Under the pieces are notes generated by a model. That model saw nothing but the letters and a program-made list of their open reading frames with translations, searched no databases and had not been told where the DNA came from. Source: Terriglobia bacterium (lineage in GTDB: Bacteria > Acidobacteriota > Terriglobia > Bryobacterales > Bryobacteraceae). Taken from it: a stretch of DNA of 34,423 nucleotides. How positions within the stretch are numbered: position 1 is the stretch's first letter; each line of letters starts with the position of its first letter. The position numbers and the translations under genes were made by a program. The stretch is from positions 1-34,423 of the forward strand of contig JANYJA010000082.1 in the NCBI GenBank assembly GCA_025358575.1, written 5' to 3'. Below are positions 2,403 to 33,816 of the stretch, piece by piece.

Positions 2403-3221
2403 CTACGAAACCGAGATGAAGCTCGAACTCGACTGTCCCGGACGGACATGCAAGTACTGCCTCGTTGTAGCGACTGATGCATGTCCAAGCGTTGCCTGAA
2501 CGAGATGGATGGGCGCGCCATTGTCGAGAGGTGTGAGGCGTGAGCGTGTCTGAGCCAGTGCGTAGTCACGTTGGCTTCGATGCCGGCGCATTCTTGGCTT
2601 CTCTCACGATTCTCAGCACGCGCGAAGGCTCCAGGCAGTTGCCAGTTCGCGAAGAAAATATCGGCGCGTGTGATGGCGCTGCCGCTCGGAACGCGACCAG
2701 GTCCGTTCAAAGGCACTGCGGCATCAGAATGGCGCGGTGGCGACGCCCCTTTCCGGACACGATGATTTGGCCGGAATCCGCGAGGATCTGCAGATTGCGC
2801 CAAGTGAGGCGGCATGCTTCCGACACCCGAATTCCAGCCGTGTAAATGAGCGCTAACAGTAATCGGTTTCGGAAGTCGGGCTCGAGCGCGATCTTCGGCG
2901 CACGTCCTCTTCCGCGACGATCCGTTCCGACAGACGACTTTCGCAGCGAGGCAAGTCCAGCGAAGCGGCGGTATTCGTGCAGTAGCCGATTCTTTTCGCG
3001 AACCCAAACAGGCTGCGAATGGCCTTGATCGTTCGCCCCTGCGAAATCGGCGCGAGTCCCGCGTCCGCTAATGACGCGGCGAAGCGTTCCAGATCTAGGG
3101 CACTCGTCTCCGTCAGAGTCTTGCCAGTCCACTTCAGCAGCCGGTTCACATCGCGAAAATAACAACTTCGGGTAATCGGACTAGGCTGCCGGTGCAGCCA
3201 GAGTTCGACTTCGTTGGCATC
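2403..3221 (-). pseudogene. Tyrosine recombinase (XerD-like integrase), multiply frameshifted
   Basis: Read on the minus strand, the segments DANEVELWLHRQPSP to RIGYCTNTAASLDLP (N-terminal SAM-like DNA-binding domain, 3221 to about 2900), LLLALIYTAGIRVSEACRL (first catalytic arginine), HWLRHAHASH (HxxR box) and LGHASVATTRQYLH (terminal His and the nucleophilic Tyr) together make nearly a full tyrosine recombinase. They lie in three frames with at least three shifts, near 2895, 2720 and 2545, so no functional protein is made. All catalytic residues are still recognisable, which points to fairly recent decay. An integrase here fits the idea that 1-6080 was delivered by a mobile element. The outermost N-terminus (beyond about 3236) could not be traced. 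Confidence 0.85.
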
Positions 3222-28501: not shown

Positions 28502-29173
28502 ATGCTCGATCACGGTCTCGCCGACCGTCTAGCCACTGTTCGTGACCGCATCGCCACCGCCGCCGCGCGCGCGGGCCGCACTCCCGAGCAGATCCTCTTG
28601 CTCGCCGTCACGAAAGTCTTCCCGGCGGCCGTCGTCCGCGACGCCTACGAACTCGGACTGCGGGACTTCGGAGAAAATTACGTTCAGGAATTCGAGCACA
28701 AAGCCCCGCTCGTTGCGGACCTCTCTGGAGCCCGCTTCCATCTCATCGGCCACCTTCAATCCAATAAGTCCCGCAAGGCCCTCGATTTATTTCAAGTCAT
28801 CCAGACGGTGGATTCACCGCGCTTGGCCGCCCGCCTTAACGAATCGCCCACGCCGGTCGAAGTTTATCTGGAAGTAAAGCTGTCCGCCGAAGAATCGAAA
28901 CACGGCGCCCTTCCAGAAAAGCTCCCCGAACTGATCGAAAGCGTCCGCGCCTGCCCCCAACTCACGCTCACCGGTCTCATGACCATTCCTCCTTGGACCG
29001 AAGAGGCCGAACAGTCCCGCCCTTATTTCCGCGCGCTCCGCGAGCTTGCCGCGCGTCACAATCTGGCTGGTCTGTCTATGGGGATGTCGCACGACCTCGA
29101 AGTTGCCATTGAAGAAGGTGCCACCTGCGTGCGCATCGGCACGGCCCTTTTTGGCAAGAGGCAGAAGTCGTGA
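28502..29173 (+). CDS. yggS: YggS/PLPBP-family pyridoxal-phosphate homeostasis protein
   Basis: A 223-residue PLP-binding protein of the YggS (PROSC/PLPBP) family, which keeps free PLP and amino-acid pools in balance without catalysing a known reaction. Motifs: LLAVTKVFP with PLP-binding Lys38, LRDFGENYVQEFEHK, HLIGHLQSNKSRKAL, LTGLMTIPPW and GMSHDLEVAIEEGATCVRIGTALFG, the phosphate-binding end. Length is typical. CGGAG precedes the ATG. The stop overlaps the GTG of the next gene. Confidence 0.93.
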   Translation: MLDHGLADRLATVRDRIATAAARAGRTPEQILLLAVTKVFPAAVVRDAYELGLRDFGENYVQEFEHKAPLVADLSGARFHLIGHLQSNKSRKALDLFQVIQTVDSPRLAARLNESPTPVEVYLEVKLSAEESKHGALPEKLPELIESVRACPQLTLTGLMTIPPWTEEAEQSRPYFRALRELAARHNLAGLSMGMSHDLEVAIEEGATCVRIGTALFGKRQKS

Positions 29174-30267
29174 AGGTGAATTACGACGCGCCGCCGCCGA
29201 GCGCGGCCTCAGGCGTCGCCGCCTACGCCGCCGTGCTTCTCATTGCTCTGCGCGCACGTGGCGATGTCGGCAGATTTCCCAAAGCCGATGTCTCCCTCTA
29301 CCATCTCGGCAACAATCAACTCCACCTCGGAGCGTACCGTCGCGCACTCGCCCAGCCCGGTGTAGTCGTCCTTCACGACGCGGTCTTAAATCATTTTTTC
29401 CTCGGCTCTCTTACCGCGAACCAATACATCGACGAATACGTTTACAACTATGGTGAGTGGTCGCGCCCGCTAGCCGCTCAGCTTTGGCGTGAGCGCGCCG
29501 GCTCCGGCAGCGATGCCCGTTACTTCGACGCCCCCATGCTCAAACGTATCGCGACCACTTCAAAAGCCGTGATCGTGCATAATCCCGGTGCCGCCGAGAT
29601 GGTGCGCCGTCACGCGCCCGCGGCCTCCATCATCGAAATTCCGCACTTCTACCAGGACGAACCCGCGCCCGAAGTTTCTGACGTAATTCGCTACCGCTCG
29701 AGTCTAGGCGTGCAACCGGGCACCTTCCTCTTCGGTGTCTTCGGCTATATCCGCGAATCCAAACGCCTCCTCACCATTCTTCGCGCCTTCGACTCTCTTC
29801 ACCGAGCTTTGCCAAGCTCGTGCCTCCTCGTCGCCGGTCGCATCATCTCGCGGGATCTCGAACGCGCCGCGCATCCCCTTCTCCAAAATCCCGGTATCAT
29901 CCGCCGCCCTTTCCTTTCCACCGGCGACTTCCGGCTCGCCGCTCACGCCGTGGACGCGTGCGTCAATCTGCGCGTCCCCGCCGCCGGCGAAACCTCTGGC
30001 ATCGCTATCCGCCTCATGGGTACCGGTCGCCCCGTCATACTGAGCGAGGGAGCCGAAATTGCCCGTTTTCCCGCCGGCTCGTGTCTCCGCATTCAAGCCG
30101 GAGTTGCCGAACGCGCCGACTTGTTTGAACATATGTCTGTAGTAGCGGTCGTTCCTTTCATGGCGCGCGAGATAGGGTTACGCGCAGCCGGCCACGTTCA
30201 GAGCCGCCACCGCCTGGAACCGATCGCCGACCAATATTGGAGTGCGTTGTGCGCCTGCCGCAATTAG
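29170..30267 (+). CDS. Family GT4-like glycosyltransferase
   Basis: A 365-residue soluble glycosyltransferase of the GT-B fold. N-terminal Rossmann-like part with YHLGNNQLHLGAYRRAL and VVLHDAVLNHFFLG, then the hinge HNPGAAEMVRRHAP and IPHFYQDEP. The C-terminal half has GTFLFGVFGYIRESKRLLTI and SSCLLVAGRI, and a donor-site region GETSGIAIRLMGTGRPVILSEG in place of the usual E-x7-E loop. The GTG start overlaps the yggS stop by four bases and its end overlaps the next gene by 19. Probably it adds sugars to an envelope or exopolysaccharide product; the sugar is unknown. Confidence 0.8.
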   Translation: MKVNYDAPPPSAASGVAAYAAVLLIALRARGDVGRFPKADVSLYHLGNNQLHLGAYRRALAQPGVVVLHDAVLNHFFLGSLTANQYIDEYVYNYGEWSRPLAAQLWRERAGSGSDARYFDAPMLKRIATTSKAVIVHNPGAAEMVRRHAPAASIIEIPHFYQDEPAPEVSDVIRYRSSLGVQPGTFLFGVFGYIRESKRLLTILRAFDSLHRALPSSCLLVAGRIISRDLERAAHPLLQNPGIIRRPFLSTGDFRLAAHAVDACVNLRVPAAGETSGIAIRLMGTGRPVILSEGAEIARFPAGSCLRIQAGVAERADLFEHMSVVAVVPFMAREIGLRAAGHVQSRHRLEPIADQYWSALCACRN

Positions 30268-32033
30268 CGATCACCGGCTGCTTCCTCATAGCCCTGGCGA
30301 TCCGTGTGGTCGCGCAGGTTGAACATCCCTCTCATATCACCGCCCACGCCTTCATGCGAATGCACGACGGCGTTCACCTCGCCGCGAATATTTTCCGCCC
30401 CGCTGAACACGGACGCTTCCCCGCGGTTCTCGTCCGAACCCCTTACGGAAAGGGCGTCGAAATGAGCGCACATTATCACGCTTTCGTGGACCGCGGTTAC
30501 GCCGTTGTCGCCCAGGACGTCCGCGGGCGCTATGAATCGCAAGGAGTCTTCTCACCCCTCGATCAGGAGTCTCGCGACGGAGACGACACTATCAATTGGA
30601 TTGCGGCCCAGCCCTGGTCCGATGGCGGCGTGGGTATGATGGGCGGCTCGTATCTCGGTATCTCTCAGTGGAAAGTCGCCGTGCTAAACAACCCGCATTT
30701 GAAAGCCATATTTCCGATCGTCTCCGGCGACGACGATTATCGCGATCGTTTCTATTCCACTGGCGGCGCGTTTAAACTTGGCAACCGCCTGTTGTGGACT
30801 TCGGAAAACATGCGCCTCGCTGGCTATGAACCCCCCGACTTCTGGAAATTCATCTGGACCCTCCCCGTGCGCAAGACCGACACGCTGGCCACGGGGCACA
30901 AGTCACCCATGCTGCAGCAGGCCTTCGATCATCCATCCGAAGACGCCTTTTGGAAGAATCTGAGCACGCGTCGCAAGCTCAAAGATTTCCACGTCCCCGT
31001 TTTCACGGTCGGCGGTTGGTACGACAATTTTGTGGAAGGCGACCTCGACGCCTTTTCTATCCTGCACAAGCACTCCAGTATCGATCGCATTCTCATCGGA
31101 CCCTGGCCGCACAACATGTCCATCCCGATCACTACCGTAGATTACGGCCCACACGCCCTGGTCCCGTTGCGCCGCACGCAATTGGAATGGTTCGACCAAT
31201 GGCTCAAGCATAAAGATGTGCCGCTTACCTCGCAGCCGCCGGTCCGGATTTTCGTGATGGGTGTGGATCAATGGCGCGATGAGCAGGAGTGGCCGCTCGC
31301 GCGCGCCCGCGAAACCCGTTTCTATCTTAAGAGCAACGGCCACGCCAACACCGTTTTCGGCGATGGCGTCCTTTCTCCGGAACCAGCAACTGGCAACGCG
31401 CGCGATGAATTTGTTTATGACCCGCAGCACCCCGTCCCCACCGCCGGCGGATCCGTCTGCTGCAATCCCGACGTATTTCCATGGGGGCCCGTCGACCAGC
31501 GCAAAGTCGAAAAGCGAAAAGACGTGCTGGTTTATAGCACCACCCCGCTCGCCGACGATCTGGAAGTGACCGGCCCCATTGAGGTTGTTCTGCATGCGGC
31601 CAGCAGCGCGCCCGACACCGACTTCACCGCCAAGCTGGTGGATGTATACCCCAACGGACAGGCCATGAATTTGACTGATGGCATCCTCCGCGCGCGTTAC
31701 CGCAATTCGCTCGAAAAGCCGAAGCTTATGAAAAGCGGCCGCATTTACAAGCTCACGATTGACGCAGGAGTCACCAGCAACGTGTTTCGCAAGGGGCATC
31801 GCATCCGCCTTGAAATATCGAGCAGCAACTTCCCTCGCTTCGATCGTAATCCCAACACCGGCCGCCCCGTCGCGGACGAAGCTCAACTCGTCAAGGCGTC
31901 GCAGACCATCCACCACGACCGGTGGCATGACTCCTTTCTCCTGCTGCCGGTGATTCCCCAGGCCCTACCCCGATTGACTTCAACCGCTCCAACGCGCTAT
32001 TTTGCAAAGAGATCCGCATCCCTGGCGCGGTAG
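30249..32033 (+). CDS. Secreted CocE/NonD-family (X-Pro dipeptidyl-peptidase S15) hydrolase
   Basis: A 594-residue exported serine hydrolase. GTG 30249 starts a signal peptide (RLPQLAITGCFLIALAIRVVA-Q); a TTG at 30237 is also in frame. The alpha/beta-hydrolase domain carries the nucleophile elbow MMGGSYLGIS (Ser134), VAQDVRGRYESQG, the acid in the GGWYDNFVEGD region and the histidine in LIGPWPHN. The C-terminal jelly-roll (VTGPIEVVLHAASSAPDTDF onward, ending DSFLLLPVIP) is the XPD C-domain. Family members cleave acyl esters, cocaine-like esters or X-Pro peptides; here the natural substrate is unknown. Its 3' end is unusual: the TAG stop (32031-32033) is inside the tRNA-Cys gene, the last three codons overlapping the tRNA. 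Confidence 0.88.
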   Translation: MRLPQLAITGCFLIALAIRVVAQVEHPSHITAHAFMRMHDGVHLAANIFRPAEHGRFPAVLVRTPYGKGVEMSAHYHAFVDRGYAVVAQDVRGRYESQGVFSPLDQESRDGDDTINWIAAQPWSDGGVGMMGGSYLGISQWKVAVLNNPHLKAIFPIVSGDDDYRDRFYSTGGAFKLGNRLLWTSENMRLAGYEPPDFWKFIWTLPVRKTDTLATGHKSPMLQQAFDHPSEDAFWKNLSTRRKLKDFHVPVFTVGGWYDNFVEGDLDAFSILHKHSSIDRILIGPWPHNMSIPITTVDYGPHALVPLRRTQLEWFDQWLKHKDVPLTSQPPVRIFVMGVDQWRDEQEWPLARARETRFYLKSNGHANTVFGDGVLSPEPATGNARDEFVYDPQHPVPTAGGSVCCNPDVFPWGPVDQRKVEKRKDVLVYSTTPLADDLEVTGPIEVVLHAASSAPDTDFTAKLVDVYPNGQAMNLTDGILRARYRNSLEKPKLMKSGRIYKLTIDAGVTSNVFRKGHRIRLEISSSNFPRFDRNPNTGRPVADEAQLVKASQTIHHDRWHDSFLLLPVIPQALPRLTSTAPTRYFAKRSASLAR

Positions 32034-32098
32034 CCAAGTGGTAAGGCAAAGGTCTGCAAAACCTTTATTCGTCGGTTCGATCCCGACCCGCGCCTCCA
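32024..32098 (+). tRNA. tRNA-Cys (anticodon GCA)
   Basis: A full cloverleaf folds by eye. Acceptor GGCGCGG (32024-32030) pairs with CCGCGCC (32088-32094). The D-arm is GCC-GGC, the anticodon stem AAGGT/ACCTT with loop CTGCAAA (anticodon GCA), and the T-arm GTCGG-TTCGATC-CCGAC. The discriminator is T and an encoded CCA ends the gene at 32098. GCA with a U73 discriminator is the cysteine tRNA. The first ten bases overlap the coding end of the hydrolase, whose stop codon is tRNA positions 8-10. Confidence 0.97.
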
Positions 32099-32109
32099 AA
32101 CTTCCCGGT

Positions 32110-33816
32110 ATGACTAAGCTCGCATGGCTAGTTTTTCTATCCTTTCCGCTGTTTTCACAAACCTTTAGCCTCCCGAGCGGACCAAGTCTTCCTGATGCTT
32201 GTAAGGTGGGGGATTTGTTCTTTTCAACCTCTCAGCCGCCCGGCAAGAACATCTTCGGCTGTATTCCGGCGAACTCCTGGGTGGCTGAAAGTGTAGGCAA
32301 GGAATTATTTACCGCCACGGGCCGTAAGACAGTTGCCCGCACGGCTCTATCTAAGCTTGAAGAGCAAGTGAGCCTGCGGGACTTTGGCTGTGCCGGAAAC
32401 GGGATTATCGACGACAGCGCGTGCGTTTCCGCATGGCTTAGTGATGTGATATCGCACCACCGGAGAGGCTTTTGTCCGGATGGCGTCTACAAAGTCACTA
32501 CTCCGATTACTTATAGAGTTAATTCCAACGGAGGGGACGACAACAACTTCACGGGCACCGTGATCCAAGGAGTGCGCGGCGGCTGTTCGCTCATGTGGTC
32601 GCAGAACGGCACTGGCGTGATGATTACATTAGTTGGCTCCAGGGGTATGCAGCAAGAAAAAGTAACTATAACCGGGATTCGATTTGTTAGAGACAACGTA
32701 TCCACCGGCGCATCCGCTGCTTTATTGCGTCTCGATGGCATCGCGGGCCTCTTTCTCAATCAAAATGATTTCGAAGGCCCCATATTGAACCAGGCCCACA
32801 CCCTGTGGCTGAGCGCGACCCAGCAGGGCGAAATCGGAGGGAACAACTTTACGGGTGCGGGAATCCTTTACGACGACCCCCTGAAGACCGGTGCCACCGG
32901 CCCGCTGGAAATTCACGGCAGTAATGTCGCGGGCATGGGAAACCATTACTTTTTCGAGCATAAAGGCGGAGACTCCTGGCTGCATAACAATCATATGGTC
33001 CAGGGCGGCGCCTGTATCTACAGTGACACCGGTGTAACCAAGCCCCCATTCAGCACAATTGTAGCCACCGACAACCATTGTGAGAATATGAGCGTGGTTG
33101 GGTTTTATATCAATGGTTCCGAACTATATGCCAAAGGCAATCAGATCTACATGTCTGAGGGTATCCCCGCCATTGATACAGTGATTGGCCGGTCCTGGAT
33201 CGATCTAAATCATATAGGCGGCGGAGATATCATCTTCCGGTCTGGCGCTTGTGCCGGCGCAGACCCGGCGCTAACTTTCTGCCGGATCTTTGGCAATGAT
33301 TACTATGGTTCGCTCCTGGATCACACCGCCTATCATCAGGTTCAAAACTTCATGAATATTAAGGCCGGGAACAATCCTCGCTCAACCATCTCTTCCAGAC
33401 TGGAGGATCCGCTCAAAATTACAACTTTCCAGATCGGCGGTTCGGTCAAGCTGCTTGATTTGCAGGGCAATAACCACCAGCCTCAGAATGTCTCGGAATC
33501 CCTTAGCGCGACAGGGAATGGCACAGCTACTTTCACGCTCGGCACCGGTTCGGCTCACGACTTTGGGATTCAAAGCAGCACGGCTCAAGACCACCTGAGC
33601 GTGATAAAAGATGGTGTCGAGTACATCCGTGCCACCCCTGCCAATACGACTTTTGCCAAACCTATTACATTGGCGGGTTCGCCGTTAGCGGCCTTGGGGA
33701 ACCCTCCAAACGGCACGATACAACTCTGCACCGATTGCACCGTCACGAACCCTTGCGCCGCAAAAGGCACTGGTGCCCTGGCAAAACGCCTCAACAACGT
33801 ATGGGTCTGCAATTAA
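32110..33816 (+). CDS. Secreted pectate-lyase-3-like beta-helix protein
   Basis: A 568-residue exported protein. Signal peptide (TKLAWLVFLSFPLFS-Q), then a short Cys-containing segment, then a Pectate_lyase_3-type motif (VSLRDFGCAGNGIIDDSACVSAWL) that opens a right-handed parallel beta-helix, with repeated short strands through about residue 430. A separate C-terminal part ends [29 protein letters not shown]-type (Cys-rich, similar to tails of acidobacterial phage-fibre-like proteins). No catalytic residues are evident, so enzyme activity is not claimed. It may bind or cleave polysaccharide at the surface. ATG 32110 begins the signal peptide; it lies only 11 bases after the tRNA CCA and has no good Shine-Dalgarno sequence. 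It ends tail to tail with the CbiO-like gene, the stops overlapping in TTAA. Confidence 0.7.
   Translation: MTKLAWLVFLSFPLFSQTFSLPSGPSLPDACKVGDLFFSTSQPPGKNIFGCIPANSWVAESVGKELFTATGRKTVARTALSKLEEQVSLRDFGCAGNGIIDDSACVSAWLSDVISHHRRGFCPDGVYKVTTPITYRVNSNGGDDNNFTGTVIQGVRGGCSLMWSQNGTGVMITLVGSRGMQQEKVTITGIRFVRDNVSTGASAALLRLDGIAGLFLNQNDFEGPILNQAHTLWLSATQQGEIGGNNFTGAGILYDDPLKTGATGPLEIHGSNVAGMGNHYFFEHKGGDSWLHNNHMVQGGACIYSDTGVTKPPFSTIVATDNHCENMSVVGFYINGSELYAKGNQIYMSEGIPAIDTVIGRSWIDLNHIGGGDIIFRSGACAGADPALTFCRIFGNDYYGSLLDHTAYHQVQNFMNIKAGNNPRSTISSRLEDPLKITTFQIGGSVKLLDLQGNNHQPQNVSESLSATGNGTATFTLGTGSAHDFGIQSSTAQDHLSVIKDGVEYIRATPANTTFAKPITLAGSPLAALGNPPNGTIQLCTDCTVTNPCAAKGTGALAKRLNNVWVCN

What the first reader, a model, noticed from the sequence alone, without database searches (positions are those of the whole stretch)
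32024..32116. Hydrolase stop codon inside tRNA-Cys, and a secreted protein gene 11 bases after the tRNA
The last ten bases of the CocE-like gene are the first ten of the tRNA, the stop codon being tRNA positions 8-10. The next gene starts 11 bases after CCA without a ribosome-binding site. Transcription through all three would need the tRNA to be cut out of an mRNA, leaving a very short leader or destroying one message.
Basis: seen in the sequence. Interest (0 to 1): 0.5.

Follow-up and report, generated by a model that had tools for sequence, protein, structure and literature searches.

The report
Gene stop codon inside tRNA gene
An enzyme gene in this bacterium has lost its own stop codon and now reads through a tRNA's promoter to end on a UAG that belongs to the tRNA itself, an odd-looking but recurrent and probably harmless overlap; the secreted-protein gene just after the tRNA looks like a newcomer at a spot where mobile DNA likes to insert.

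Summary
The CocE-like hydrolase ends in TAG at tRNA-Cys positions 8-10, and a secreted-protein ATG lies 11 bases after CCA. The tRNA has its own candidate promoter, TTGACT-18-TATTTT, 20 bases upstream and inside the hydrolase's last codons. That motif precedes tRNA-Cys in 31 of 59 upstream windows from the family, against 1 of 560 control windows. The tRNA therefore need not be cut from the hydrolase mRNA. Of 11 genomes where this hydrolase directly precedes tRNA-Cys, 4 stop inside the tRNA and 7 stop 25-56 bases earlier. The overlap is best read as stop loss: translation runs through the promoter and is caught by U8-A9-G10, which 59 of 60 tRNA-Cys genes carry. The arrangement recurs in this genome at PurD/tRNA-Arg(CCU) and a ThiE-like gene/tRNA-Arg(UCU). 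For purD, 8 of 20 adjacent pairs stop inside the tRNA's -10 box and 6 of 20 on the tRNA's TAG. tRNA-Cys is an integrase target in some relatives, and the secreted gene is a singleton among 237 family genomes. It probably depends on read-through from the tRNA promoter. No RNA data.

The parts
30237..32033 (+). CocE/NonD family hydrolase (S15/PepX_C); start codon uncertain (TTG 30237 or a later one)
31959..32033 (+). Hydrolase C-terminal tail beyond the TIGR00976 match (residues 575-598 plus stop), overprinted on the tRNA promoter and tRNA 5' end
   Evidence: match ends at residue 574; same-frame tails LTS...RY in G033 and G064
31974..32003 (+). Candidate tRNA-Cys promoter: TTGACT, 18 bases, TATTTT; -10 box ends 20 bases before the tRNA
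   Evidence: motif in 31 of 59 family windows vs 1 of 560 controls
32024..32098 (+). tRNA-Cys (GCA), CCA encoded; the only tRNA-Cys among 40 distinct tRNA genes listed
32031..32033 (+). TAG: stop codon of the hydrolase and tRNA bases U8-A9-G10
   Evidence: 59 of 60 tRNA-Cys genes have TAG here
32099..32109 (+). 11-base spacer between CCA and the next ATG; no Shine-Dalgarno by eye, no + strand promoter or terminator found
32110..33816 (+). Secreted protein gene, probable right-handed beta-helix/tail-spike-like, singleton in the family, lower GC than its neighbours

Best explanation
This is a stop-loss overlap of a protein gene with a neighbouring, independently transcribed tRNA gene. The gene order hydrolase - tRNA-Cys is older than this genome and left only a short gap, which holds the tRNA's promoter. 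In some lineages the hydrolase has no stop of its own there. Translation then runs through the -35 and -10 boxes, giving a non-domain tail (LTS...RY...), until it meets a stop triplet that cannot easily change because it belongs to something else: here U8-A9-G10 of the tRNA; elsewhere the -35, the -10, or the tRNA's TAA at 19-21. The tRNA is transcribed from its own promoter with a leader of about 14 bases. The downstream secreted gene is a separate, probably recent arrival at the 3' side of the tRNA, which in relatives is a site used by tyrosine-recombinase elements. It lacks a promoter of its own that I could recognise and is most likely transcribed by read-through from the tRNA promoter, then released with a leader of about 11 bases. 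Shown here: the anatomy, the conserved promoter footprint, the variable hydrolase ends, the recurrence at other tRNAs, and integration at tRNA-Cys in relatives. Inferred: actual promoter use, the direction of change (stop lost rather than gained), read-through, 3' processing, and how the secreted gene arrived in this genome.
For: Own promoter: TTGAC-N17-20-TANNNT in 31 of 59 75-base windows upstream of tRNA-Cys, 1 of 560 control windows further upstream, 0 of 59 on the reverse strand; the -10 ends 16-25 bases before the tRNA in 25 of the 31, and 25 of the 31 show no hydrolase match in the upstream DNA held. Variable hydrolase end: of 11 genomes with the hydrolase directly upstream, stops lie in the tRNA in 4 (G000, G033, L165 at 8-10; G064 at 19-21) and 25-56 bases before it in 7; the stop is part of the -35 in G081 and L167, of a -35-like TTGATT in G069, and of the -10 in G013. 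The tail lies beyond the conserved domains, and in G000, G033 and G064 it is the promoter read in the same frame. The overlapping rows are scattered on the hydrolase tree, with at least 2 changes forced. Recurrence: PurD and a ThiE-like gene end on TAG 8-10 of two tRNA-Arg genes of the same genome. Of 30 purD loci, 20 have tRNA-Arg(CCU) within 100 bases; 8 stop inside the -10 (TAGAAT/TAAAAT), 6 on the tRNA TAG, all 6 with a stop-free TACAAT/TATAAT -10. Downstream site: 3'-part copies of tRNA-Cys in relatives, with integrase matches within 240 bases of the tRNA in G033, G036, G083; the secreted gene has GC 50-55% against 57-61% over the hydrolase and no match at E <= 1e-12 in 236 other family genomes.
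Against: No transcript data. 28 of 59 tRNA-Cys windows lack the strict motif within 75 bases (in G064 it lies further out), and L165 has the overlap without a recognisable promoter. The 29-row tree has weak branches, its label is no more clustered than shuffles, and it does not give the number or direction of changes. In G000 no second copy of the tRNA 3' end was found and no integrase match lies beside the tRNA; the contig ends 2.3 kb downstream, so island membership of the secreted gene is not shown. G069 also has a secreted-protein ATG exactly 11 bases after tRNA-Cys CCA, which my account leaves to chance or to a shared insertion point.
Confidence: 0.85

Rival explanations
1. Functional mRNA-tRNA coupling: the hydrolase operon is read into the tRNA, RNase P cuts at tRNA base 1 and so removes the hydrolase stop codon, making a non-stop message whose ribosomes need rescue. 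tRNA maturation thereby limits hydrolase synthesis.
For: No + strand terminator was found before the tRNA in the stretch scanned (31700-32400), and the stop lies 3' of the RNase P site. The overlap recurs at other genes, including PurD.
Against: The tRNA has its own promoter motif. The overlap is not kept: 7 of 11 adjacent hydrolases and 14 of 20 adjacent purD genes stop before the tRNA. The genes concerned (CocE hydrolase, PurD, ThiE-like) share no regulatory theme that I can see.
Confidence: 0.08
2. The three genes are one functional operon (hydrolase - tRNA - secreted protein) in which the secreted protein's expression is tied to tRNA-Cys supply.
For: Same strand, 11-base gap, no intervening + strand signals found; G069 has a different secreted protein (NHL-repeat-like by eye) also 11 bases after CCA, and the hydrolase upstream.
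Against: The secreted gene is a singleton in 237 genomes, while the hydrolase-tRNA pair occurs in ten other genomes and the DNA after tRNA-Cys differs between genomes by eye. Its composition differs.
Confidence: 0.05
3. Assembly or sequencing error: an indel near the end of the hydrolase hides its true stop.
For: The tail is outside the conserved domains and the genome is a draft in 261 contigs.
Against: The tail frame matches that of G033 and G064 (LTS...RY.AKR), and G033 and L165 end on the same TAG.
Confidence: 0.02

Closest known systems
Same-strand overlapping genes born by loss and replacement of a stop codon (PMC3887535: title and start of abstract seen in a search listing)
   Same: An upstream coding frame that lost its stop and ends at a stop triplet inside the next gene.
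   Different: The neighbour is a tRNA gene and its promoter, not a coding frame, so the new stop is a structural base triplet of a tRNA or part of a -35/-10 box.
Mobile islands in tRNA genes (Islander, PMC4383910: title and start of abstract seen in a search listing)
   Same: tRNA-Cys of some relatives carries an integrase next to it plus displaced 3' tRNA fragments.
   Different: In this genome no displaced fragment or adjacent integrase was found, so membership is not shown.
Bacterial mixed tRNA-mRNA transcripts (E. coli thrU-tyrU-glyT-thrT-tufB, secG-leuU; recalled, my searches listed nothing usable)
   Same: tRNA directly followed or preceded by a protein gene on one strand without an obvious terminator.
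   Different: No such ten-base overlap is known to me in those operons (recalled, not checked); cotranscription here is untested.

Membership tests
Stop-loss overlapping gene pair | Upstream frame ends inside the next gene | tested here: met
   TAG at tRNA bases 8-10
Stop-loss overlapping gene pair | Relatives with the same gene order stop before the neighbour | tested here: met
   7 of 11 genomes stop 25-56 bases before tRNA-Cys
Stop-loss overlapping gene pair | Extra C-terminal residues lie outside the conserved domain | tested here: met
   TIGR00976 match ends at residue 574 of 598
Stop-loss overlapping gene pair | Direction of change is loss of an earlier stop | tested here: inconclusive
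   Tree of 29 rows: at least 2 changes, direction not resolved
Genomic island in a tRNA gene (for the secreted gene) | Displaced 3' fragment of the tRNA at the far end | tested here: inconclusive
   None in G000 with up to 3 mismatches in 30 bases, but the contig ends at 34423; present in relatives
Genomic island in a tRNA gene (for the secreted gene) | Integrase within the element | tested here: inconclusive
   No PF00589 match between 32098 and the contig end (on this contig only matches at 2442-2877); matches within 240 bases of tRNA-Cys in G033, G036, G083
Mixed tRNA-mRNA transcription unit | One RNA spans tRNA and protein gene | not testable with these tools
   No RNA data; only absence of + strand promoter/terminator matches between them
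Independent tRNA transcription unit | Conserved own promoter motif at a fairly constant distance | tested here: met
   31 of 59 windows vs 1 of 560 controls; 16-25 bases in 25 of 31

The most novel reading that the evidence does not exclude
In this Acidobacteriota family, protein genes upstream of tRNA genes repeatedly take their stop codon from the tRNA's transcription signals (-35, -10) or from U8-A9-G10. Because RNase P cuts upstream of a stop borrowed from the tRNA body, any read-through message that is processed becomes a non-stop mRNA, so tRNA maturation and ribosome rescue act as a built-in brake on the upstream gene (CocE, PurD, ThiE-like).
Probability: 0.07. Interest if true: 0.65.

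Novelty: new variant of a known kind. Interest (0 to 1): 0.36.

Why it matters
It suggests a simple rule for how protein-tRNA overlaps arise. Many tRNAs carry a stop triplet (U8-A9-G10) in one frame, and their -10 boxes can read TAG or TAA, so a gene that loses its stop in front of a tRNA can be caught within a few codons. That would explain odd C-terminal tails in annotated proteins, warns against trimming or dropping such genes in annotation, and offers natural test cases for what RNase P does to a message whose stop codon lies inside a tRNA.

Tried and rejected
Misfolding idea: in one folded stretch the hydrolase tail pairs with the tRNA acceptor strand, while the precursor from the predicted start folds as a cloverleaf. 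Over 53 tRNA-Cys genes acceptor pairing with 45 upstream bases (mean 0.63) did not differ from that with shuffled upstream bases (mean 0.72; Wilcoxon p = 0.29), so I dropped it.

The long open frame 32002-33816 running through the tRNA into the secreted gene: one tRNA frame simply has no stop. The apparent signal peptide begins at 32110, so this is taken as chance.

A single-sequence structure model of the secreted protein had mean pLDDT 31.9 and was not used. Viral contigs: 6 stretches matched a pattern, none encodes a relative. Phages: 16 records matched, none over 80% of the query; best E 4e-9 over residues 523-568, about 8e-7 over residues 52-133 of Klebsiella phage proteins, and 7e-6 at 22% identity to a 'pectin lyase fold protein'.

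L176 (Eubacterium, 35% identity) was left out of the junction survey, which covered 16 of 17 loci; L173 among these is cut by its contig end. One tRNA line could not be parsed. One of 60 tRNA-Cys genes has under 75 upstream bases and was left out of the promoter count. Upstream DNA held was 1.5 kb or less for many tRNA-Cys loci, and several contigs end sooner, so hydrolase neighbours may be undercounted.

Literature: in the rows listed (20 of 209; 20 of 101; 10 of 34; 3 of 3; 8 of 35; 2 of 2; 1 of 1) no title or abstract start reports a bacterial stop codon inside a tRNA or tRNA promoter. Unlisted rows were not seen, and the library lacks most subscription papers, so this is no proof of novelty. 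Searches were for tRNA integration sites and ribosome rescue. I opened no paper; I saw only search listings with the starts of abstracts.
Full report
What is there. The window belongs to a draft genome of 4.77 Mb in 261 contigs. The 16 named relatives of the hydrolase at 52-68% identity are Bryobacterales/Bryobacteraceae, Solibacteraceae and other Acidobacteriota records. tRNA-Cys(GCA) lies at 32024-32098 and is the only tRNA-Cys among 40 distinct tRNA genes listed. The CocE/NonD-type hydrolase upstream (TIGR00976, 482 bits, residues 40-574) ends in TAG at tRNA bases 8-10. An ATG 11 bases after CCA opens a 568-residue protein with an apparent signal peptide.

The tRNA has its own promoter motif. 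A scan of 31700-32400 found one promoter-like site, TTGACT-18-TATTTT at 31974-32003. I then collected tRNA-Cys genes from the 54 of 61 family genomes that had a match (60 tRNA genes in all) and compared their upstream regions. The motif TTGAC-N17-20-TANNNT is in 31 of 59 windows of 75 bases directly upstream, in 1 of 560 windows taken 100-1000 bases further upstream, and in 0 of 59 on the opposite strand. The -10 box ends 16-25 bases before the tRNA in 25 of the 31. In 25 of the 31 no hydrolase match was seen in the upstream DNA held, so the motif does not depend on that neighbour. I read tRNA-Cys as an independent transcription unit whose promoter happens to lie in the hydrolase's last codons.

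How the overlap arose. Searching the hydrolase and the tRNA in relatives gave 11 genomes in which this hydrolase is the gene directly before tRNA-Cys: eight from the family survey (G000, G013, G033, G036, G063, G064, G069, G081) and L164, L165, L167 from named records (L160 is the same genome as G063). In four more genomes (G021, G030, G062, G078) a relative of the window gene 29170-30267 lies upstream of tRNA-Cys without a hydrolase match. The hydrolase stop lies inside the tRNA in 4 of 11: TAG 8-10 in G000, G033 and L165, TAA 19-21 in G064. In the other 7 it lies 25-56 bases before the tRNA. The TGA is part of the -35 box in G081 and L167 and of a -35-like TTGATT in G069; in G013 the TAA is part of the -10; in G063 and L164 the TGA stands just before the -35. 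In G000, G033 and G064 the tail is the promoter read in the same frame: TTGACTTC gives LTS and CG(C/G)TAT gives RY; L165 has no recognisable promoter there. The tail lies outside the conserved domains. On a 29-row hydrolase tree the overlapping rows do not form one group, and starred branches force at least two changes. The tree is weakly resolved and the label no more clustered than shuffles, so I claim recurrence, not a number or direction of changes.

Why the stop is at bases 8-10. Of 60 tRNA-Cys genes, 59 have TAG there, as do 20 of 40 distinct tRNAs of this genome. Any frame entering in that register is caught. In the same genome two further genes end on this triplet: PurD (TIGR00877, 440 bits, cut-off 288) at tRNA-Arg(CCU), and a ThiE-like protein (TIGR00693, 129 bits, below its cut-off of 145) at tRNA-Arg(UCU). 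For purD I examined the 30 loci returned from 41 genomes searched: 20 have tRNA-Arg(CCU) within 100 bases, 10 have none within 400. Of the 20, 8 stop within the -10 box itself (TAGAAT or TAAAAT), 6 on the tRNA TAG, and 6 elsewhere before the tRNA. In all 6 that run into the tRNA the -10 is TACAAT or TATAAT, which holds no stop in that frame. So the -10 box is the first backstop and U8-A9-G10 the second. This is the most general thing learned here.

The downstream gene. DNA after tRNA-Cys differs from genome to genome by eye. I searched PF00589 in 8 genomes: 7 chosen because they had partial tRNA-Cys copies, plus the own genome. In 3 of the 8 (G033, G036, G083) an integrase match lies 210-237 bases beyond the tRNA's 3' end. 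Copies of the tRNA's 3' two-thirds, from the anticodon stem to CCA, lie 7 kb (G036), 20 kb (G033) and 1.8 kb (G072) downstream on the same contig, or on other contigs. This is the known signature of elements that integrate in a tRNA gene. In G000 itself no second copy was found and no integrase match lies beside the tRNA, but the contig ends 2.3 kb downstream. The secreted gene has 50-55% GC against 57-61% over the hydrolase. It has no match at E <= 1e-12 in 236 other family genomes; among 60 relatives searched at E <= 0.001, 20 match only short segments, mostly between residues 12 and 110. Its weak similarity is to phage tail and pectin-lyase-fold proteins (Pfam NosD 21.3 bits, below its cut-off of 23.6). 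I call it a probable beta-helix; a single-sequence model was useless. No + strand promoter or terminator match was found between tRNA and ATG, so read-through from the tRNA promoter with cutting near CCA is the likeliest source of its message. G069 has an unrelated secreted protein also exactly 11 bases after CCA; 2 of the 56 tRNA-Cys genes examined have this, and I have no explanation beyond a shared insertion point or chance.

Verdict. The overlap is real, well explained and not unique. It is best read as a stop-loss overlap in which the neighbour is a tRNA with its own promoter, rather than a processing paradox.

Noticed in passing
L138 (G069), tRNA-Cys and the gene after it: An 806-codon secreted protein (NHL-repeat-like by eye) starts exactly 11 bases after tRNA-Cys CCA, like the window's unrelated secreted gene; this genome also has the hydrolase just upstream of the tRNA.
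   Followed up: partly
L177-L206 (purD loci of the family): The -10 box of the tRNA-Arg(CCU) promoter doubles as the purD stop codon (TAGAAT/TAAAAT) in 8 of 20 adjacent pairs; 6 of 20 end on the tRNA's TAG.
   Followed up: yes
window 2442-2877, minus strand: Decayed phage-integrase-like fragment (PF00589 match with 2 TGA stops and a second piece next to it).
   Followed up: no
G029 C119 end and short matches at the ends of C332 and C401: Contig C119 ends exactly at the tRNA-Cys 3' end and 20-21-base copies of that end sit at the ends of two other contigs, as expected if several element junctions collapse in assembly.
   Followed up: no
window 32002-33816: The secreted gene's reading frame stays open backwards through the whole tRNA; tRNA-Cys has no stop in that frame.
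   Followed up: yes
L046 (G062), L053 (G007), L139 (G021), L135 (G015): Tandem pairs of tRNA-Cys genes with diverged second copies in some family members.
   Followed up: no
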